A program made the position numbers and the translations under genes. Of a DNA stretch of 28,797 nt, positions 7,004 through 20,040 are shown one piece after another; position 1 is the stretch's first letter, and each line of letters opens with the position of its first letter. The notes below the pieces were generated by a model. It saw nothing but the letters and a program-made list of their open reading frames with translations, was not told where the DNA came from and did no database searches. Origin of the DNA: a virus; the IMG/VR virus record IMGVR_UViG_3300020121_000304, positions 1 through 28,797 of that record. The stretch is one strand, 5' to 3'.

Positions 7004-7179
7004 CCCGCGTCATCGCCGCGGCCGCCGGACTGGCCGCCGCCGCCATCCTGGCCGCCGTCGTGGTCCTTCACGTCCTCACGGTCATGTCCGGGGCGGCGGC
7101 GCGTACCGCGGTGAACGGCTACGCCTCCTACTGGCAGTCGGTAGGCCAGCAGGTCCAGCAGGCGAAGGAGCAGCCATGA
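7000..7179 (+). CDS. single-pass membrane peptide
   Basis: A 59-residue protein from GTG 7000 (GTGA overlap with the previous stop). Residues 5-27 form one long hydrophobic helix (VIAAAAGLAAAAILAAVVVLHVL), followed by a short external or periplasm-like segment with aromatic residues (VNGYASYWQSVGQQVQQAKEQP). The topology is that of a signal anchor. Its end overlaps the WhiB start. Function unknown. Confidence 0.65.
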   Translation: MTRVIAAAAGLAAAAILAAVVVLHVLTVMSGAAARTAVNGYASYWQSVGQQVQQAKEQP

Positions 7180-7490
7180 ACCCGGCCGGCCCGGTCCTCC
7201 TGCAGGTCGTCATGACCGCCGGGGAAGCCGCAGAACTGGCATGGCAGGACGAAGCCCTGTGCGCTCAGACAGACCCCGAGGCGTTCTTTCCCGAGAAAGG
7301 CGGCTCAACCCGCCTGGCCAAGCAGGTCTGCCTCAACTGCGACGTCCGGGCCGAATGCCTGCGGTTCGCCCTCGATCACGATGAGCGGTTCGGTATCTGG
7401 GGCGGGATGTCCGAGCGCGAGCGCCGCCGCCTCAAGCACGTACGTACGTCTGCGCCACCCATCCCGCAACCAGTGAAAGCAGTCGCCTAG
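7176..7490 (+). CDS. WhiB-like iron-sulphur transcription factor
   Basis: A 104-residue protein from ATG 7176 (ATGA overlap). The four cluster-binding cysteines are at residues 29, 52, 55 and 61 in the canonical C-X22-C-X2-C-X5-C spacing, followed by the GIWGG turn at 73-77 and a basic segment (SERERRRLKHVR) for DNA contact. WhiB-like proteins carry a [4Fe-4S] cluster, bind the principal sigma factor and are confined to actinobacteria and their phages and plasmids. Here it sits within the membrane-protein cassette and probably adjusts host or element transcription, perhaps in response to redox or NO; the targets are unknown. Confidence 0.95.
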   Translation: MNPAGPVLLQVVMTAGEAAELAWQDEALCAQTDPEAFFPEKGGSTRLAKQVCLNCDVRAECLRFALDHDERFGIWGGMSERERRRLKHVRTSAPPIPQPVKAVA

Positions 7491-13002: not shown

Positions 13003-13090
13003 AATGCGTGCAATGAGTGCACGCCACCCCCTATAACGCGCTGGCCGCACTCATTCCGGGAATGCGTGCACCGCAATGCGTGCACTCGTT
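13003..13090. repeat. clt: six-copy AATG(C/A)GTGC repeat cluster, candidate clt (TraB target)
   Basis: Copies on the plus strand: AATGCGTGCA at 13003-13012, AATGAGTGCA at 13012-13021, AATGCGTGCA at 13061-13070 and 13075-13084. Copies on the minus strand: AATGAGTGC at 13047-13055 and AACGAGTGCA at 13081-13090. The third and fourth copies face each other and form an almost perfect 11-bp inverted repeat. The cluster occupies a 154-base gap immediately after traB, the position of clt in known Streptomyces plasmids (for example pSVH1), although the repeat unit differs from theirs. Confidence 0.65.
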
Positions 13091-13124: not shown

Positions 13125-13730
13125 GTGATCACCTGGACGGGGCAGGCTCAGCTGCTCGCCGATGACATCCGCGAGCCCGGTTTCGCCGCGGCCGGCCTCA
13201 ACGCCTCCGCGTGGTGCGCCCGCGTGGACCCGGAGGCCACTCACGGCCTGGTCGGCGCCGCGCTGGCCCTGACCAGCGGCGATGCCGGGAAGACGCTGTG
13301 GTCTGCCGCGGACCCGTGCCCCGACGACGCGACCCTGCTCACGGCGGCAGCCGAACTGGAGGGCGCCGCCGCCGAACTGCTGGAACACGCCCGCAGGATG
13401 ACCGCCGCCTGCCGCGCCGATTACGAGACTGCCCTGGCCGCCGCCGCGGCGGCCAGGGCAGCCATCGATTCCGCGAAAACCCCGCAGGCCAGGGCCGACG
13501 CGGAGGATACGCTCCGCGCGGCCCGGTCCGTCATCGCCGACTGCGAGGCCGCCCTGGAGATCCTGGACGAGACAGGCACCCGCCTCGCCCACGCCGGGAA
13601 CTGCCTGCGCCGCGTCCCGGACGACCTGGCCGGCACCTATGAGGTCCCGTACGCCTTCGTGCAGGACGGCGGGAAACTGCCCTACGACGGGGAGTTCCTG
13701 ACTTCCGGGATCAGCTACGAGGCGGCGTGA
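13125..13730 (+). CDS. hypothetical helical protein downstream of traB
   Basis: A 201-residue protein. GTG 13125 is chosen because GGAGG lies six bases upstream and because the longer frame to 13017 would run through the repeat cluster. Residues about 65-160 are an Ala-rich, heptad-like helical region (LLTAAAELEGAAAELLEHARRM, AAAAARAAIDSAKTPQARADAEDTLRAARSVIADCEAALEIL, probably antiparallel coiled coils). The last 35 residues are not helical (YEVPYAFVQDGGKLPYDGEF). Unknown family; may partner the membrane coiled-coil protein that starts 2 bases after it. Confidence 0.65.
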   Translation: MITWTGQAQLLADDIREPGFAAAGLNASAWCARVDPEATHGLVGAALALTSGDAGKTLWSAADPCPDDATLLTAAAELEGAAAELLEHARRMTAACRADYETALAAAAAARAAIDSAKTPQARADAEDTLRAARSVIADCEAALEILDETGTRLAHAGNCLRRVPDDLAGTYEVPYAFVQDGGKLPYDGEFLTSGISYEAA

Positions 13731-13731
13731 C

Positions 13732-14634
13732 ATGTCAGTAACGGCCGGCGCGGGATACCCGGAACGGACGGAGGACAGGATGACGATAGACGGCATGACA
13801 CCAGCGCACGCGAAGCCTTCCCGCCGGGACCACCTGTGGGTCCTGGTCATCATCGCCGGGTTCGCCATGTACGACGTGTGGGGAGCCTGGGCGCAAATCG
13901 GGAACAAGTCCGGGTTCGCCCACGGCACCGGCTGGACCCTGACCGTGATCGCCGAGGCCTACTGGGGGTACGCCCTGTTCGCCTGGTTCCGCGCCCCGGG
14001 CCCCCGGTCGCGCAGGTTCGCGATGTGGTCCGCCGCCGCCGTGTTCATCATGAGCGCCGTCAGCCAGGCCGCGTCGCACCTCGCCGCCGACAAGATGCCG
14101 CCGGCCGCGGTAGTGGTGTTCGTCAGCATCCTCCCGGTGACCGTGCTCGCCCTCATCGCAGTCCTGATCCACCTCCGGCAGAAGGACCGGGAGGAGTCCG
14201 CGGAAGCCGACGAGCGGGCCGGCGTGCAAGCAGAGACAGACACGCTGCGGGCCGAACTGCAGGCCGCGCGGGAGGCTCTTGCGGGTGCCGCAGCCGAACG
14301 CGAAACGGCGCTGCGGGAGGCCGCAGAGGCAGCCGCAAAGATCGAGACCCTGACCCGCAAACTGGCCGCCGCAGCGACCCGCAAGCGCACCCCGCAGCGG
14401 CCCGCAAAGAAGCCCGCAAGCGCACCCCGCAGCAACCCCGCAGAGAACCCCGCAACCGAGGTGCCGAACGACGTAGATGCGCAGGCCGAGGCGCTGTCCA
14501 TCCTTGCTGCGGAGCCGGACATCAGCGGGGCGAAACTCGCTGAGCGGGTAGGCAAGAGCGAGCGCTGGGGGCAGACCTTCAAGAAGAACCTTGCGGGCTC
14601 GGCTGCTGGTCCCGAGGGGCGGCCGGATGAGTGA
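13732..14634 (+). CDS. DUF2637-like four-helix membrane protein with coiled coil and HTH
   Basis: A 300-residue protein from ATG 13732. Four membrane helices are visible at about 36-54, 68-84, 95-115 and 125-146. They are followed by a charged coiled coil (about 150-220; ETDTLRAELQAAREALAGAAAE), a Lys/Pro/Ala-rich linker (RPAKKPASAPRSNPAENPA) and a C-terminal winged-helix-like segment (ALSILAAEPDISGAKLAERVGKSERW). This combination is found on Streptomyces plasmids and integrative elements next to transfer genes (DUF2637). It may link DNA to the membrane at the transfer site; that is inference. The 3' end overlaps the convergent gene 14579-14839 by 56 bases. Confidence 0.7.
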   Translation: MSVTAGAGYPERTEDRMTIDGMTPAHAKPSRRDHLWVLVIIAGFAMYDVWGAWAQIGNKSGFAHGTGWTLTVIAEAYWGYALFAWFRAPGPRSRRFAMWSAAAVFIMSAVSQAASHLAADKMPPAAVVVFVSILPVTVLALIAVLIHLRQKDREESAEADERAGVQAETDTLRAELQAAREALAGAAAERETALREAAEAAAKIETLTRKLAAAATRKRTPQRPAKKPASAPRSNPAENPATEVPNDVDAQAEALSILAAEPDISGAKLAERVGKSERWGQTFKKNLAGSAAGPEGRPDE

Positions 14635-14839
14635 GCCGGTGCTCCACCTCATCCAGCGTCAGCCCCCAGCCCATGGTGGAGGCGAACTGCGTTGCCTCCA
14701 CGCCGTCCGCAGTCTCAACCCGGTACTTCCCGAAGTCGACCGCGAGCGTGTCGCGCCGACGCGATTTCACGAGCCGGAAGCCTTGCCGTTCGGCCATCCG
14801 GCGGAGCCGGTTCTCGCGCACTTTGGTGCTTGTGTCCAT
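14579..14839 (-). CDS. small conserved actinobacterial hypothetical protein
   Basis: An 86-residue protein from ATG 14839. The core KVRENRLRRMAERQGFRLVKSRRRDTLAVDFGKYRV, then TLDEVEHRLT, matches a very common small actinobacterial family: a basic N-terminal helix followed by beta strands. The family has no assigned function that I know of; the basic first half suggests nucleic-acid contact. It is the only leftward gene in this stretch, convergent with the DUF2637-like gene and divergent from the GIY-YIG gene. Confidence 0.75.
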   Translation of the reverse strand: MDTSTKVRENRLRRMAERQGFRLVKSRRRDTLAVDFGKYRVETADGVEATQFASTMGWGLTLDEVEHRLTHPAAPRDQQPSPQGSS

Positions 14840-14872
14840 ACCGGAAAGCGTACCAGTCGTGATGCTGGACGG

Positions 14873-14878
14873 TATGCT
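14873..14878 (+). promoter_or_regulatory. -10 element of a probable leaderless promoter
   Basis: TATGCT lies six bases before ATG 14885 and no ribosome-binding sequence precedes that ATG. Transcription would begin at or next to the start codon. No clear -35. Confidence 0.45.
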
Positions 14879-14884
14879 AGATGT

Positions 14885-15376
14885 ATGACCGATGGCAATC
14901 TAGCGCTCCCGATCGAACTCCTGGGCAGCATCGAAAGGTATGCCGTCTATCGCTGCTATAGCGACAGTGGCCAGCTGCTCTACGTCGGCGAAACGGGAGA
15001 CCTTGGAACGCGGCTCGCCGATCATGTGAAGAAGCTCTGGTTCATTCAGGTTCGCGGGATCACCCTTGAGTGGTACGCCGACGAATTGGACGCCCTGAAG
15101 GCCGAACGCCGCGCGATCCACGTCGAGCACCCGAAGTACAACAAGGCGCATCGCAATACAGTTCGCCTAGCCCCACCTGCGCCGCGCAGACCGACTGGAC
15201 GCGGGGACAAACTGACGACGGAGGAGCGTGCGGCGAATCTTATGAACGCAGACCCCGCACTCCGAAAGCCCCGCATGGGCGGTGAACTGGCCCGCAGGCT
15301 CGGCGTTAGCCCGGCGACGGGCCGCAGGCTTCACGCCAAGCTAACGGCTCCTGAGCGATCCGGTGAGCGCTCATGA
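14885..15376 (+). CDS. GIY-YIG nuclease with C-terminal helix-turn-helix
   Basis: A 163-residue protein from ATG 14885. GIY-YIG features: AVYRCYS (residues 20-26, the GIY strand), LLYVGET (31-37, the YIG strand), catalytic-type Arg43 in DLGTRLADH with His47, a conserved-position Glu in ELDALKAERRAI and PKYNKAH. Residues about 135-158 form an HTH (MGGELARRLGVSPATGRRLHAKL). GIY-YIG enzymes cut DNA with one metal ion; small ones occur in homing, restriction and element-encoded repair. The HTH may give target specificity. It overlaps the next gene by ATGA. The longer frame upstream to 14591 has no support. Confidence 0.85.
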   Translation: MTDGNLALPIELLGSIERYAVYRCYSDSGQLLYVGETGDLGTRLADHVKKLWFIQVRGITLEWYADELDALKAERRAIHVEHPKYNKAHRNTVRLAPPAPRRPTGRGDKLTTEERAANLMNADPALRKPRMGGELARRLGVSPATGRRLHAKLTAPERSGERS

Positions 15377-15669
15377 CGACCCCGGCCCCTTTCCCTCCGT
15401 ACACCGCTGCTGCCATCGACGCCATCGCCGAGGCCGTCACAGCCGAACACGACTTCGGCGGCTGGCTGTCGATGGTCCTGGCCTACGCCGCCGCCCGCCA
15501 CGGCTCCCTGGACGCGCTGACCGCGGGGCGGCCGGGGTCGTGGGAAGCTGCCGACGTGGACCACCTCGTGCGCGGGCTCGTCTTCGACGATGAGGGGCTG
15601 AGGCGGTACGCGGACGACGACTGGAAGCGGCGCGAGACCGGGACGCGGGAGGACGGCGACCATGACTGA
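15373..15669 (+). CDS. hypothetical acidic protein
   Basis: A 98-residue protein from ATG 15373 (ATGA overlap with the GIY-YIG gene). It is acidic and helical: YTAAAIDAIAEAVTAEHDFGGWLSMVLAYAAARHGSLDAL, then SWEAADVDHLVRGLVFDDEGL. No membrane helix. The last eight bases overlap the next gene, so all four genes from 14885 to 16539 are likely one operon. Family not recognised. Confidence 0.7.
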   Translation: MTTPAPFPPYTAAAIDAIAEAVTAEHDFGGWLSMVLAYAAARHGSLDALTAGRPGSWEAADVDHLVRGLVFDDEGLRRYADDDWKRRETGTREDGDHD

Positions 15670-16021
15670 CCGGCTTCCGCGCGGGATCGTCCCGCCCGGC
15701 ACCTACGCCAAAGGCGGCCGTTCCCCGATCGTCTACGTCCGCCTGTGCCCGCCGTGCGCCGGGTACGCCCCGACCACCGGCGAGGACTACGATGGCGCGC
15801 TGTCCGGCCGCTGCCAGGGCTGCGGCGCGGACTCCCGCGAGCTCCACCGGTTCCAGGCGCTCATCTTGTCCGCGGCCAACGGCGGCTGCTTCTGCGAGGG
15901 ACACCGGCAGGTGACGGGAGACCTGCCGACCATGGCGTCCGCAGATGCGGTGCTGACGGAGGTTCTGACACGGCCTGCGCAGTACCTCGCCGCCGAAGAC
16001 CGCGAAGTGAGGCGGCGATGA
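15662..16021 (+). CDS. zinc-ribbon protein of unknown function
   Basis: A 119-residue protein from ATG 15662. Two Cys pairs, CPPC (residues about 29-32) and CQGC (about 51-54), are spaced as in a zinc ribbon, and a further GGCFCEGH follows. The strand VYVRLCPPCAGYAP and the helix SRELHRFQALIL support a small zinc-stabilised fold. The C-terminal 35 residues are helical (ADAVLTEVLTRPAQYLAAEDREV). Start and end overlap both neighbours, so it is co-expressed with the GIY-YIG and SLOG genes. Confidence 0.7.
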   Translation: MTDRLPRGIVPPGTYAKGGRSPIVYVRLCPPCAGYAPTTGEDYDGALSGRCQGCGADSRELHRFQALILSAANGGCFCEGHRQVTGDLPTMASADAVLTEVLTRPAQYLAAEDREVRRR

Positions 16022-16539
16022 GCGACCTCACTCCGCTGCGAATCGGCGTTACCGGCTCACGCCGCTACGGCAGCCCCGCCGTGATCCGCGCCGCTCTCCT
16101 CGCCGCCCACGGCCGCGGCCGCCCGCACGACGGCCACGTCCTCGTCCACGGCCAGTGCGACCCGTGGCACCCGGACACAGGCCGGCCGGTCCCGTGGCGC
16201 CGGGCCAAGACCCTTTCCGTAGAGGTACAAGGACGGCTGCTCGGCGGTGACTGGCTAGCCGAGTGGGTAGCCCTCGGGATGGCCACGTGGGACGGCATCA
16301 CATGGGAGATCGAGCGTGTCCCCGCGGACTGGCACCCGGCCGGCCGGTTCGACCGGGCAGCCGGGTTCAGCCGCAACGCGGACATGGTGAGACGCGGGGC
16401 GGACGAGTGGCTGGCGTTCGCGCTGCCCTGCTCCGACCACCGCTGCTACAGGACGGACCCGCACCCTTCCCATGGCACGGCGCACTGCGCAGACCAGGCC
16501 GGCAAGGCAGGCGTCCCCGTGCATCGCTTCACGGCGTGA
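16018..16539 (+). CDS. SLOG-family protein, YspA/DUF2493-like
   Basis: A 173-residue protein from ATG 16018 (ATGA overlap). It has the Rossmann-like SLOG pattern: strand and glycine loop RIGVTGSR (residues 8-15), second strand VLVHGQCD, and GRFDRAAGFSRNADMVRRGADEWLAFALP, the usual arrangement of the YspA family, ending HGTAHCADQAGKAGVPVHR. SLOG proteins bind nucleotides or ADP-ribose-like ligands, and some act as sensors in conflict systems. The ligand here is unknown. Last gene of the 14885-16539 operon. Confidence 0.85.
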   Translation: MSDLTPLRIGVTGSRRYGSPAVIRAALLAAHGRGRPHDGHVLVHGQCDPWHPDTGRPVPWRRAKTLSVEVQGRLLGGDWLAEWVALGMATWDGITWEIERVPADWHPAGRFDRAAGFSRNADMVRRGADEWLAFALPCSDHRCYRTDPHPSHGTAHCADQAGKAGVPVHRFTA

Positions 16540-16544
16540 GGCAC

Positions 16545-16594
16545 TAGACTAGGGCATGGCCGTTCGGCCCCTTGACCTGCCCGTTTCCTGCTGA
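16545..16594 (+). promoter_or_regulatory. leaderless promoter with a 12-codon leader ORF
   Basis: TAGACT (16545-16550), a typical actinobacterial -10, is followed five bases later by ATG 16556, which opens a 12-codon frame (MAVRPLDLPVSC) ending at 16594. The next gene starts at 16610 in the same frame. A leader peptide or a lost N-terminus of that gene are both possible. Confidence 0.45.
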
Positions 16595-16609
16595 TCGGCT
16601 CCCGTTCGC

Positions 16610-16777
16610 ATGCCTCACGTGCTCCTCATTGCCGCGATTTTCGTCCCGTACATGGCCTTCATGGTGGGGATCGGCGCGTACATCGCCGGCCAGGTCCGGC
16701 AGGACGATGACCCTCCTGATACTGACCGGGACCGGAAGCGCGACCGTGACCGGGCCGAGATGAGCCTGGCAGCCTGA
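16610..16777 (+). CDS. small single-pass membrane protein
   Basis: A 55-residue protein from ATG 16610. Residues 3-27 are hydrophobic (HVLLIAAIFVPYMAFMVGIGAYIAG) and the rest is highly charged (QDDDPPDTDRDRKRDRDRAEM), a tail-in-cytoplasm topology. No strong ribosome site is seen; translation may depend on the short leader ORF that ends 15 bases upstream. Family not recognised. Confidence 0.5.
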   Translation: MPHVLLIAAIFVPYMAFMVGIGAYIAGQVRQDDDPPDTDRDRKRDRDRAEMSLAA

Positions 16778-16803
16778 GTCCTCAAAAACTTTGCGGACAC
16801 GTA

Positions 16804-16832
16804 TTGACTTACCGGGATGACGAGAGTAACGT
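16804..16832 (+). promoter_or_regulatory. strong promoter upstream of the structured RNA
   Basis: TTGACT (16804-16809) and TAACGT (16827-16832) are 17 bases apart, close to the ideal for a vegetative sigma factor. A 5-bp hairpin (GTCCT 16834-16838, AGGAC 16846-16850) lies across the expected start of transcription near 16839. Confidence 0.65.
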
Positions 16833-16851
16833 AGTCCTTGTAAGCAGGACA

Positions 16852-17128
16852 ACAGCAGAGCGGGTACGGAGCAAATAGGACCGATGCAGGGCAACCCCGT
16901 CAGATCGCAGATCCCAAGGGGCCACCACCTGAAGGTGCCACTCCTCAGGCCCGCTCTGCTGTCGCGGATCGGCCCCGGCCCGGCGCAGAACCACCCAGCC
17001 GGCCAGGGCAAGAACTCAAGTTAGCGGCTCGCCCCGGCAGGGGCGCATAGAGCCCGCCGGCTTACCCCGCCTGCACCAGAAGGCGCGGGGAGCCAGGGCG
17101 CCGTCTCCCCTAACAGGGGCCGATCCGC
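16852..17128 (+). ncRNA. two-domain structured RNA or long structured 5' leader
   Basis: Domain 1 is closed by ACAGCAGAGCGGG (16852-16864) and CCCGCTCTGCTGT (16950-16962), 13 perfect pairs. Inside are AGGGG/CTCCT with CACC-TGAA-GGTG (16926-16937) and smaller hairpins. Domain 2 starts one base later and is closed by GCGGATCGGCCCC (16964-16976) and GGGGCCGATCCGC (17116-17128), again 13 perfect pairs. Its inner helices are 16981-16986/17098-17103, 16997-17009/17052-17062 (11 pairs, two-base bulge), 17030-17035/17040-17045 and 17065-17072/17081-17090. It follows a good promoter by about 20 bases and ends 22 bases before the GGAGG of the next gene. No match to tmRNA, RNase P, SRP or riboswitch motifs that I can recall. 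No coding frame fits. Confidence 0.75.
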
Positions 17129-17160
17129 CCGCCCCGCCCGGCACCTACGAGGAGGCCCCG

Positions 17161-17547
17161 ATGACCAGCCCGGCCGCAGAACCCAAGGCCAAGACCTCGA
17201 TCGTCATGTGGACCAACGGCGGCTGGCAGCGCTGCCTGATCCACTTCAACGACGCCGACGACGTGATCGCCTGGTACACCCGCAAGCGTGAGGGGTTCAT
17301 GGACGAGAACCCCGGCGCGCTGTACTTCGACGCCGGCCTGGAGGAACTGGTCTACGACCCGCGCGCCAACTGGCCCGAAGACGTCGTGCTCACCACGTTC
17401 CCCGAGGTCGGCCCGCTCACCCCGAGCCAGCTCCGCCTGATGGAGCACCTGTACCCGACCTGCGAGCACGGCATGTCCGCCGACCTGTGCATGGGCCCGG
17501 ACCACTTCATGAGCCGCGATCAGGAGACCGCCCGCTTCGGCTACTGA
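17161..17547 (+). CDS. hypothetical protein downstream of the structured RNA
   Basis: A 128-residue protein from ATG 17161 with GGAGG five bases upstream. The first half has strand-helix character (SIVMWTNGGWQRCLIHFNDADDVIAWYTRKREGF), then ALYFDAGLEELVYDPRANW. Near the C-terminus is LYPTCEHGMSADLCMGPDHF, a Cys/His signature (C-X-HG-X5-C-X-GP-X-H) that recurs in small proteins of actinobacterial elements. Function unknown. If the preceding structured RNA is a leader rather than a free RNA, this is the gene it controls. Confidence 0.75.
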   Translation: MTSPAAEPKAKTSIVMWTNGGWQRCLIHFNDADDVIAWYTRKREGFMDENPGALYFDAGLEELVYDPRANWPEDVVLTTFPEVGPLTPSQLRLMEHLYPTCEHGMSADLCMGPDHFMSRDQETARFGY

Positions 17548-17583
17548 GCCGGATCGGCCACTACACCGAGGGGACGACACGCT

Positions 17584-17976
17584 GTGATCGCTGTCATCGG
17601 CTGCGGGAAGGCCAAGCTCGGCCATGCGGCACCGGCCCGCGAGCTGTACACCGGGTCGTACTTCCAGGCGTGCGCGCGGGCCGCCGAGGCGATCGCGCCG
17701 GGCCGGTGGTTCATCCTGTCCGCACAGTACGGGCTGCTTGCCCCGTCCGACTGGATCGAGCCGTACGACCTGGTACTCGGCGCTCCCGGCTCAGTGGCCG
17801 CTCCTCTGGTCCTGCTCCAGGCCGTGAGCCGCGATATCACCGACGAGGCGGTGACCGCGCTATGCGGCTCCCGGTACGCGGACCTGGCCGGCCAGGTGTG
17901 GGCCGAAATCGACACCCCGCTGGCCGGGATGGGGATCGGCCGCCAGCTTCAGGCTCTTGCCCGCATCGCCCGCTGA
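17584..17976 (+). CDS. DUF6884-like protein
   Basis: A 130-residue protein from GTG 17584. Visible pattern: IAVIGCGKAKL at the start, ARELYTGSYFQACARAAEAI, RWFILSAQYGLLAPSDWIEPYDLVLG. This combination (GCGKxK, LYTG, LSAxYGLL, PYD) is what I know as the DUF6884 family, found in phages and in islands that modify DNA or nucleotides; the biochemical activity is not established to my knowledge. The C-terminal helix contains PLAGMGIGRQLQALARIAR. Its end overlaps the convergent gene 17949-18164 by 28 bases. Confidence 0.75.
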   Translation: MIAVIGCGKAKLGHAAPARELYTGSYFQACARAAEAIAPGRWFILSAQYGLLAPSDWIEPYDLVLGAPGSVAAPLVLLQAVSRDITDEAVTALCGSRYADLAGQVWAEIDTPLAGMGIGRQLQALARIAR

Positions 17977-18164
17977 CGAGTCGCCGGCCTCGAACTGGCG
18001 GCTAGGACCGCCTGCTCGGCGGCCCGGCACGGTTCGTGGTAGTACCCGTTCCAGCCGGGCTGCGTCGTCACCAGGAACGTCCGCCCGCTCGCGGCCAGGT
18101 CGCTGCTGTTGTCGCACCATTCGCAGGCCCGGAGCGCCCGGCCGCAGCCGCAGAGGTGATCCAC
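17949..18164 (-). CDS. small zinc-ribbon-like protein
   Basis: A 71-residue protein from GTG 18164, whose first residues already belong to the metal-binding part: LCGCGRALRACEWC, then HEPCRAAEQAV. The Cys spacing (CGC, C-X2-C, later C) suits a zinc site. In-frame starts at 18212 or 18236 would add a poor N-terminus. CACAAT lies seven bases before GTG 18164 on the minus strand and may be the -10 of a leaderless transcript. Convergent with the DUF6884-like gene and divergent from the gene at 18221. Confidence 0.55.
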   Translation of the reverse strand: MDHLCGCGRALRACEWCDNSSDLAASGRTFLVTTQPGWNGYYHEPCRAAEQAVLAASSRPATRQRAMRARA

Positions 18165-18220
18165 GCGGGTTATTGTGCCCCAGCCTGCCCGCTTGCCGCG
18201 AGTTGACGGCATGGCCCACG

Positions 18221-19195
18221 ATGGCGCCCATGCCACGCGGACGGTCCTACCAGCAGCAGTACGACCAGGACGGCGAGGGGACCCGGCCGTGTTCCCGGCA
18301 GCCCCCCGAACTGTGCGAGTCCGCCCGCACGATCACCCTCGACGACGGCACCACCAGACGCGAACCCGGCCTGACCCCCCGCGCGTTCTGCGACCCGTGC
18401 CAGGACCGGATCATCAACTGCCTCGAACAGCTCCCCGTCATGTACCAGGGCCTCGCCGCCCGGATCGGCGACCCCGCCCGCACCGGAACCGCTGTCCGCG
18501 TCCCGCCCGGCTCCCGGGTGCTGCTGAACCCGGAGATCGACGCGCTCCTCCGCCTGGCCGCGGCGATCCTCGGCGGCTGGGCGGCCCGCGTCCGCTCCGT
18601 CCCCGGCCTGCAACTGTCCGACCCCCGGCACCCCCACGACACCCCCGCCGGGGTCGAGGAATCATGCGACACGCTAGCCCGCCACGCGACGCCGCTGCTC
18701 GACCTGCAACCCGGCTGGACGACCCGCACCTACTCGCGCCCCCTGACCCCGGAGCTCGAGGAAGCCCTAGCCGATGAGGAGGTCGTCCGCGCCGGCGAGC
18801 ACCACATCACCGTCATGCACCAGCTCGGCGGCGCCGACGCGGGCAACGAGATCCTCGGCTTGCACTGGCGGGCCCGGAAACTCCTCGGCTGGACCCGCCC
18901 CGCCCCCGAGAGCTTTGACGGGGTGCCGTGCCAGGCCTGCGACGAGATGGCCCTGGAACGCGCCGAACCCCCGTCCGACCCAGATATCCCCGCCGACCAC
19001 TCGAAATGCGCGCTGTGCAAGCACACCATGTCGCGGGAGGTGTTCGACCAGTGGGTTGACCGGTACGCCACCTGGGCGCGCGGGGCCGGGGTGCAGGAGT
19101 GCCGCCGCTGCGGCCAGGGCAGCCACCTGGAATGCTCCTGGCAGGCGTGCTCGTGCACCGTGGGGGAGCATCCGCGCCGGCGCGCCGCAGCGTGA
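18221..19195 (+). CDS. multi-zinc-site protein of unknown function
   Basis: A 324-residue protein from ATG 18221; ATG 18230 is equally possible. Four Cys clusters are visible: CDPCQD (residue about 55), CQACDE (about 232), CALCKH (about 262) and CRRCGQGSHLECSWQACSC near the C-terminus. The middle is helical (EIDALLRLAAAILGGWAARVRSVPG, then EVVRAGEHHITVMHQLGGADAGNEILGLHWRARKLLGWTRP shows a helix-rich body). Proteins of this kind are repeatedly found in Streptomyces integrative elements and prophages with no known role. It is the longest protein between the transfer and packaging modules. Confidence 0.75.
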   Translation: MAPMPRGRSYQQQYDQDGEGTRPCSRQPPELCESARTITLDDGTTRREPGLTPRAFCDPCQDRIINCLEQLPVMYQGLAARIGDPARTGTAVRVPPGSRVLLNPEIDALLRLAAAILGGWAARVRSVPGLQLSDPRHPHDTPAGVEESCDTLARHATPLLDLQPGWTTRTYSRPLTPELEEALADEEVVRAGEHHITVMHQLGGADAGNEILGLHWRARKLLGWTRPAPESFDGVPCQACDEMALERAEPPSDPDIPADHSKCALCKHTMSREVFDQWVDRYATWARGAGVQECRRCGQGSHLECSWQACSCTVGEHPRRRAAA

Positions 19196-19211
19196 CTCCA
19201 GGGCAGCGTGT

Positions 19212-19240
19212 TTGACATGAGCCGGGGGTGAAAGGATTAT
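19212..19240 (+). promoter_or_regulatory. promoter of the 19309 operon
   Basis: TTGACA (19212-19217), a perfect -35, and GATTAT (19235-19240) are 17 bases apart. Transcription would start near 19247. Confidence 0.55.
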
Positions 19241-19259
19241 TGGCGCATAGGACAACTGT

Positions 19260-19293
19260 CTCCGGACCGCGCCGCGCGGCCGGGGCTTTCTTT
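19260..19293 (+). terminator. intrinsic terminator directly behind the promoter (attenuator)
   Basis: CTCCGG (19260-19265) with CCGGGG (19280-19285) and CCGCG (19267-19271) with CGCGG (19275-19279) form an 11-bp stem with a bulged A and a CCG loop, followed by CTTTCTTT (19286-19293). It lies between the promoter at 19212 and the first gene, so most transcripts would stop after about 45 bases unless antiterminated. Confidence 0.6.
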
Positions 19294-19308
19294 ATGCGCG
19301 GGGCGGTG

Positions 19309-19569
19309 ATGATGTCCCCCCGACGAGCAGACGGCTACCTGACCACCGCCGAAGCCGCAGCGCTGGCCGGCGTCAGCGTGAACACGATCTACACCTGGCG
19401 TAACCGCGGCCACCTCGTAGCCCAGGGCCTCGACGAGCGCGGCCGCCCGCTGCACACCCGCGAGGCCGTCCGCGCGGCTGAGCAGCGGGTCCGGCAGAAC
19501 GGCCTCGCCGCGTCGGGGATCGACCCGCGCCAGCTCCGCCGCCCGGCCCCGCTTCCCCTCGCCGCCTGA
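19309..19569 (+). CDS. helix-turn-helix (AlpA/excisionase-like) protein
   Basis: An 86-residue protein if started at ATG 19309 (GGGGCGG upstream); ATG 19294 and GTG 19228 are in frame. Residues about 10-50 are a classical HTH_17-type domain: GYLTTAEAAALAGVSVNTIYTWRNRGHL, followed by the wing GLDERGRPLHTREAV. The rest is a helix (RAAEQRVRQNG) and a Pro/Arg tail. Such proteins bind short operators; here it may control the packaging genes downstream or its own attenuated promoter. Confidence 0.75.
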   Translation: MMSPRRADGYLTTAEAAALAGVSVNTIYTWRNRGHLVAQGLDERGRPLHTREAVRAAEQRVRQNGLAASGIDPRQLRRPAPLPLAA

Positions 19570-19603
19570 GCAACCGCACCCTTCTTCCCCCTGGAGACCC
19601 GCC

Positions 19604-19924
19604 ATGACCACGCCCGCCCCGGTCACCCCGACCCTGTCGATCGCCGCCGACAAGACCGTCTACAACGTCGGCGACCTGCTCACGCTGACCGCGCACTACT
19701 CCGATGCCAGCGTGAACCCGCTGACGCTGACGATCACCGCGTCCGCGACCGACGCGGCCGGGGTCACGGTCACCGCGACGACCACCGCGACCGTGAACAC
19801 CCAGACCCAGCAGCCCATGACGATCGGCGTGTCCGACTCGGCGAACGACTCCTACGTCCTCGTCAGCAACGAGGCGGGTGTCGCGGTGCTCACCACCACG
19901 GTCCAGGCACCGCCCGCGGCCTAG
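19604..19924 (+). CDS. Ig-like single-domain protein
   Basis: A 106-residue protein from ATG 19604 with GGAG upstream. It is rich in Thr and Val with alternating strands (LSIAADKTVYNVGDLLTLTAHYSD, LTLTITASATDAAGVTVTATTTATV, SYVLVSNEAGVAVLTTTV), the pattern of a bacterial Ig-like domain. No signal peptide is present, so an intracellular origin such as a virion decoration protein is likely. It is comparable in style with the partial protein at 1-314. Confidence 0.75.
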   Translation: MTTPAPVTPTLSIAADKTVYNVGDLLTLTAHYSDASVNPLTLTITASATDAAGVTVTATTTATVNTQTQQPMTIGVSDSANDSYVLVSNEAGVAVLTTTVQAPPAA

Positions 19925-19926
19925 TC

Positions 19927-20040
19927 GTGGCTGTCCTGGTGATCACGGCGACCGTGACCGACGCGGAAGGCCGGACGGCTACCGCGCAGGTCACGGTCGA
20001 CGTGCTCGACCCCGCGGCCGCCGAGCCCGCCCAGATGTGA
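19927..20040 (+). CDS. short Ig-like fragment
   Basis: A 37-residue frame from GTG 19927, two bases after the stop of the previous gene and in another frame. Its sequence, VLVITATVTDAEGRTATAQV followed by TVDVLDP, is exactly the last strands of an Ig-like domain. It may be a coupled mini-protein, a remnant, or the end of a frameshifted longer form of the preceding protein. No ribosome site of its own is seen. Confidence 0.4.
   Translation: MAVLVITATVTDAEGRTATAQVTVDVLDPAAAEPAQM

What the first reader, a model, noticed from the sequence alone, without database searches (positions are those of the whole stretch)
16804..17128. Large two-domain structured RNA behind a strong promoter
The sequence shows two adjacent closing stems of 13 perfect base pairs each (16852-16864/16950-16962 and 16964-16976/17116-17128) separated by a single base, with at least four further nested helices inside the second and a TGAA-capped hairpin inside the first. 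A TTGACT-17-TAACGT promoter sits just upstream, and no reading frame fits. Such an arrangement is that of a folded RNA, not of an operator. It matches no RNA family that I can recall, so it could be a new element-encoded RNA or a complex 5' regulator of the gene at 17161. Whether it is free or a leader is inference.
Basis: partly seen in the sequence, partly recalled or inferred. Interest (0 to 1): 0.9.

Follow-up and report, generated by a model that had tools for sequence, protein, structure and literature searches.

The report
Orphan structured RNA leader in actinophage
A virus of soil actinobacteria carries, right behind a promoter and in front of a small gene, a 277-base stretch that almost certainly folds into two large hairpin domains; it matches no known RNA family and no relative could be found, so it is probably the folded start of a messenger RNA, but what it does is unproven.

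Summary
Two perfect 13-bp inverted repeats lie at the stated places, separated by one base; the 277-nt stretch is the strongest folding outlier of the window (z about -5, window mean -0.35), and the promoter TTGACT-17-TAACGT is real (0.05 such sites expected by chance in both strands). No Rfam family fits. No relative was found by sequence or covariance search in about 1.3 Mb of related phage and prophage DNA, in phage and plasmid records, or in samples of 395 and 294 actinobacterial genomes; so there is no covariation test, and the fold rests on one sequence. The element lies between promoter and ribosome-binding site of gene 17161, without a visible terminator, and is missing from the nearest relative, which has an endonuclease gene there. 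One phage with a partly related gene has a similar arrangement (promoter, folded 148-nt leader, gene), with weak sequence likeness. Best reading: a structured 5' leader acting in cis (0.5). Rivals: a free RNA, for example an RNA-based prophage origin as in cluster A mycobacteriophages (0.22); a DNA-level element (0.12); a small gene (0.07). An unassigned candidate RNA, not a demonstrated new class.

The parts
16804..16832 (+). promoter TTGACT - 17 nt - TAACGT (actinobacterial TTGACN/TANNNT type); start expected near 16839
   Evidence: read directly; only such site with 17-nt spacing in the window, 0.05 expected by chance in both strands; no transcript data
16852..16962 (+). domain 1: 13-bp perfect closing stem (14 bp in the fold) and an unbranched rod of short helices with internal loops
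   Evidence: z -4.7; stem P about 0.99
16964..17128 (+). domain 2: 13-bp perfect closing stem enclosing a branched set of helices, inner pairing partly uncertain
   Evidence: (z -4.0)
16884..17024 (+). 46-codon ATG frame inside the RNA; probably not a gene
   Evidence: codon score -0.04 bits per codon (middle half of gene pieces here 0.33-0.56); no homologue; no clear ribosome-binding site
17149..17155 (+). ribosome-binding site GAGGAGG of gene 17161, outside the folded domains
   Evidence: predicted to pair with the gene's own 5' codons, not with the leader
17161..17547 (+). 128-aa protein, no Pfam or PHROG family; only its C-terminal YPTCEHGM...C.GPDHF motif is shared with other actinophage proteins
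17584..17976 (+). DUF6884 protein, next gene in the same direction
   Evidence: E 2e-28
16610..16777 (+). small gene upstream of the promoter, kept in the nearest relative L015; left border of the variable segment

Best explanation
A long structured 5' leader of the rightward phage transcript that begins near 16839. It folds as it is made into two adjacent hairpin domains (16852-16962 and 16964-17128) and acts in cis on the transcript of gene 17161 and the genes behind it. Shown: the stems, the exceptional predicted folding, the promoter sequence, and the order promoter, RNA, ribosome-binding site, gene. Inferred: that it is transcribed, that it folds so in the cell, and that it regulates. Neither a terminator nor sequestration of the ribosome-binding site by the leader is visible, so a classical switch is not the first choice; an RNA that binds a factor or the RNA polymerase itself (put-like), or that protects the 5' end of the message, fits better. 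This last step is a guess (about 0.2 for a polymerase-modifying leader).
For: Exceptional fold, the lowest of 207 windows. Promoter exactly upstream. The structured part ends 32 nt before the ATG, with a good ribosome-binding site between and no terminator-like site on the + strand in 14000-20000. In L007 a gene with the same C-terminal motif stands behind a TTGACA-17-TAAAGT promoter and a folded 148-nt leader (core z -4.1), while most of the other same-type promoters of that phage class for which a leader could be delimited have short ones. The two leaders share ACAACAGCARAGCGG at the same place and GCAACCCCG about 42 nt on; alignment of the first 75 nt has p about 0.002-0.005 against shuffles and background.
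Against: No homologue of the RNA, hence no covariation. The L007 model does not find the window RNA, the free local alignment is not significant (24 of 500 shuffles as good), and the two proteins share only a C-terminal motif. Other carriers of that motif (L004, L005, L008, L009 and annotated phages) have no such leader. The opposite strand folds as well.
Confidence: 0.5

Rival explanations
1. A free-standing phage noncoding RNA acting in trans or in replication, for example an RNA-based prophage replication origin as in cluster A mycobacteriophages without RepA.
For: Actinophages without integrase and RepA use a noncoding RNA region as prophage origin (PMC7157519); the Alma origin RNA is an equally strong folding outlier (z -5.2) and is likewise in no Rfam family. 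No large frame in this 28.8-kb fragment was identified as an integrase or replication protein (not every frame was scanned).
Against: No parA/parB recognised next to the RNA; no sequence or model likeness to the Alma RNA; no terminator before the gene 32 nt on; the fragment is incomplete, so an integrase could lie outside.
Confidence: 0.22
2. A DNA-level element (cruciform, single-strand or double-strand replication origin, or protein-binding site) rather than an RNA.
For: Both strands fold equally well in the model (z -5.06 and -5.08); closing stems are perfect Watson-Crick inverted repeats.
Against: An exact promoter and a ribosome-binding site frame it in one direction; no iterons or direct-repeat arrays.
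Confidence: 0.12
3. A small protein gene (46 codons, 16884-17024), with the fold a by-product of GC-rich sequence, or an upstream frame coupled to 17161.
For: GC by codon position 69/53/84 resembles genes here (70/49/93), and a 33-codon frame exists at the like place in L007.
Against: Codon score well below most genes, no homologue, the two peptides are not alike (shuffle p 0.64), no clear ribosome-binding site; two adjacent 13-bp perfect stems would be unexplained.
Confidence: 0.07
4. No function: a chance or relic fold in a variable segment of the phage genome.
For: Absent from the nearest relative, which carries an HNH/AP2 endonuclease gene in its place; no conservation found.
Against: z about -5, two adjacent perfect stems and an exact promoter together are improbable by chance.
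Confidence: 0.09

Closest known systems
HK022 put RNA (putL, putR) of lambdoid phages
   Same: structured RNA of two hairpins behind a phage promoter (putL directly behind it), at the head of a gene block
   Different: put is about 70 nt with two stem-loops (PMC9378689); this is 277 nt; no likeness shown, no antitermination data, different host phylum
RNA-based prophage replication origins of cluster A mycobacteriophages (Alma, LadyBird, RedRock)
   Same: long RNA in an actinophage, highly folded in Alma, in no Rfam family
   Different: those lie beside parABS and are transcribed away from parA; no par genes recognised here; no sequence or model match to Alma
Riboswitches and other structured 5' leaders in Rfam
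   Same: position between promoter and ribosome-binding site
   Different: no family at the gathering score; in a loose search only weak matches well below it; no terminator or hidden ribosome-binding site seen
L007 leader (uncultivated actinophage, IMGVR_UViG_3300019889_000017)
   Same: promoter, folded leader, gene with the YPTCEHG motif; shared 15-nt word at the start of the closing stem
   Different: one domain, three-way junction in the model; its covariance model does not match the window RNA

Membership tests
any Rfam 15 family | score at or above the family's gathering score | tested here: not met
   best is PyrR205 at 22.9 bits against a threshold of 35.6
HK022-type put RNA | two stem-loops of about 70 nt in all behind an early promoter | tested here: not met
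   277 nt, two large domains; only the position agrees; size from PMC9378689
HK022-type put RNA | antitermination through the RNA polymerase beta' zinc-binding domain | not testable with these tools
   needs an in vivo or in vitro terminator read-through assay
RNA-based actinophage prophage origin | adjacent parABS, absence of repA and integrase | tested here: inconclusive
   no parA/parB, integrase or repA recognised among the frames examined, but not all frames were scanned and the record is a fragment
RNA-based actinophage prophage origin | sequence relation to known origins (41-71% among themselves) | tested here: not met
   no blastn match above chance and no model match with the Alma region; the other origins were not compared
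riboswitch or attenuator leader | alternative terminator or sequestration of the ribosome-binding site | tested here: not met
   no terminator-like site; the site pairs with the coding region, not with the leader
structured RNA (any) | compensatory base changes among homologues | not testable with these tools
   no homologue found

The most novel reading that the evidence does not exclude
A new class of large structured actinophage RNA, such as a polymerase-modifying leader at the head of a phage gene block or an RNA-primed replication origin unrelated to those of mycobacteriophages.
Probability: 0.2. Interest if true: 0.75.

Novelty: new member of a known kind. Interest (0 to 1): 0.45.

Why it matters
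Actinophage noncoding RNAs are little catalogued; even the experimentally supported prophage-origin RNA of phage Alma matches no Rfam family. A 277-nt, two-domain leader would be large for a phage regulatory RNA. If it modifies the polymerase or primes replication it would add a mechanism that I know only from lambdoid phages or mycobacteriophages. With one sequence and no homologue it remains a candidate.

Tried and rejected
Short BLAST matches in Streptomyces plasmids (L002, L003) and in genomes (L025-L038) were judged chance GC-rich matches: those read in full lack the fold. The domain-2 model hit in the record of L007 (L132, 25 bits) lies antisense inside a terminase-like gene and was rejected. 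Loop-word scans of viral contigs gave only unrelated sequence of lower GC. Adjacent stem pairs elsewhere (L007, L084) were not followed up; long hairpins (L006, L075, L089, L097, L107) fold differently. A shared promoter of L005 and L007 at first looked gene-specific, but it is a promoter class repeated about 12 times in the L007 phage and about 16 times in phiAsp2, so it does not by itself link the leaders. The 46-codon frame and its L007 counterpart are not alike. The DUF6884 protein gave no viral relatives. Caution: 'nothing found' in the genome searches comes from samples and from single-sequence models with strict filters.

Full report
WHERE IT IS. The window is a whole IMG/VR record of 28,797 bases, a virus record without named host. 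It holds a terminase (22006), a portal protein (23607), a WhiB regulator (7173-7487) and a P-loop ATPase gene (10778; weak AAA_22 match). Related terminases occur in Streptomyces, Peterkaempfera and Streptantibioticus genomes, so this is a phage of actinobacteria, Streptomycetaceae or near.

THE OBSERVATION. Both 13-bp perfect stems are present with one base between them. Folding is far stronger than in shuffled sequence: z -4.7 for domain 1, -4.0 for domain 2, -5.1 for both. Of 207 windows of the same length, this one is the extreme (-5.5; mean -0.35). Closing stems have probabilities near 0.99 and stay formed to 65 C in the model. Domain 1 is a rod of short helices; domain 2 is branched, and its inner pairs are less certain. 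The opposite strand folds equally well, so the energy does not by itself say that the RNA rather than the DNA is the functional form.

THE PROMOTER. TTGACT-17-TAACGT is exact. It fits the actinobacterial form, with 0.05 sites of that spacing expected in both strands of the window. It is not strong by the E. coli consensus and was not listed by the simple scan. No transcript data exist here.

KNOWN FAMILIES AND RELATIVES. Rfam gives nothing. No relative appeared by blastn in phages and plasmids, by nhmmer and by two single-sequence covariance models over about 1.3 Mb of related phage and prophage DNA, by whole-record searches of 48 viral records, by blastn and the domain-1 model in 395 actinobacterial genomes, by the domain-2 model in 294 genomes, or by loop-word scans of viral contigs. 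Positive controls worked: the models find the window itself. These are samples and single-sequence models, so absence is not proof, but close relatives are clearly not common.

THE VARIABLE SEGMENT. The nearest relative, L015 (88% identity in the ATPase protein), keeps the small gene upstream (80% DNA identity over 16514-16684) but then has an HNH/AP2 endonuclease gene on the opposite strand where the window has the RNA, gene 17161 and the DUF6884 gene. The RNA thus belongs to a variable block, not to the phage core.

LEADER OR FREE. The order is promoter, RNA, ribosome-binding site, gene 17161, all on one strand. The folded part ends 32 nt before the ATG. No terminator-like site was found on that strand nearby, and the ribosome-binding site pairs with the gene's own codons, not with the leader. 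Proteins that share the C-terminal YPTCEHG motif of 17161 occur in other actinophages. Most have short leaders. One, L007, has a TTGACA-17-TAAAGT promoter, then a folded 148-nt leader (core z -4.1), then the gene. Its leader begins with CACAACAGCAAAGCGG, the window's with GACAACAGCAGAGCGG, at the start of the closing stem in both; GCAACCCCG follows about 42 nt later in both. [quoted passage not shown] This is a hint, not homology. The promoter of L007 belongs to a class repeated in that phage and in Actinoplanes phage phiAsp2; most of the leaders that could be delimited there are short, so the folded leader of L007 is unusual.

OTHER READINGS. A 46-codon frame inside the RNA has gene-like GC by codon position but a poor codon score and no relatives. 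Noncoding RNA regions serve as prophage replication origins in cluster A mycobacteriophages (PMC7157519). The Alma origin RNA is as strongly folded (z -5.2) and is in no Rfam family, but shares neither sequence nor model with the window RNA, and no par genes were recognised here. HK022 put RNA (PMC9378689) is the nearest functional analogue for a leader without terminator or hidden ribosome-binding site; it is about four times smaller.

VERDICT. Observation confirmed; interpretation partly supported. Most likely a structured cis-acting 5' leader of a variable phage gene block (0.5). Its mode of action is unproven; a factor- or polymerase-binding leader is my choice, inferred from what is absent. 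Covariation could not be tested, and that is the missing proof.

Noticed in passing
L007:4641-4817: Promoter TTGACA-17-TAAAGT followed by a folded 148-nt leader with a 10-bp closing stem before a gene with the YPTCEHG motif; a possible distant counterpart of the window RNA.
   Followed up: partly
L135 and L158-L170 (phiAsp2; record of L007): A promoter class like TTGACACTTCACAGTCAAGCCTGTAATGT repeated about 16 times in phiAsp2 and about 12 times in the L007 phage, absent from the window with up to 2 mismatches.
   Followed up: partly
L171:664-1160, reverse strand (phage Alma 26463-26959): The experimentally supported RNA-based prophage origin of Alma is a strong folding outlier (z -5.2 over its best 277 nt) and matches no Rfam family; relatives in about 150 phage records would allow a covariation model.
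   Followed up: partly
L015:5651-6346: HNH/AP2 endonuclease gene on the opposite strand exactly where the window carries the RNA and two genes: a variable slot in this phage group.
   Followed up: partly
L006:4550-4651: A 16-bp perfect closing stem over 102 nt in the gap before another gene with the YPTCEHG motif; not similar to the window RNA.
   Followed up: no
window 16514-16609: DNA ahead of the small gene 16610 is about 80% identical to L015, perhaps a conserved regulatory region.
   Followed up: no
window 13429-13461: A 15-bp perfect inverted repeat with a 3-base spacer inside the gene at 13017.
   Followed up: no
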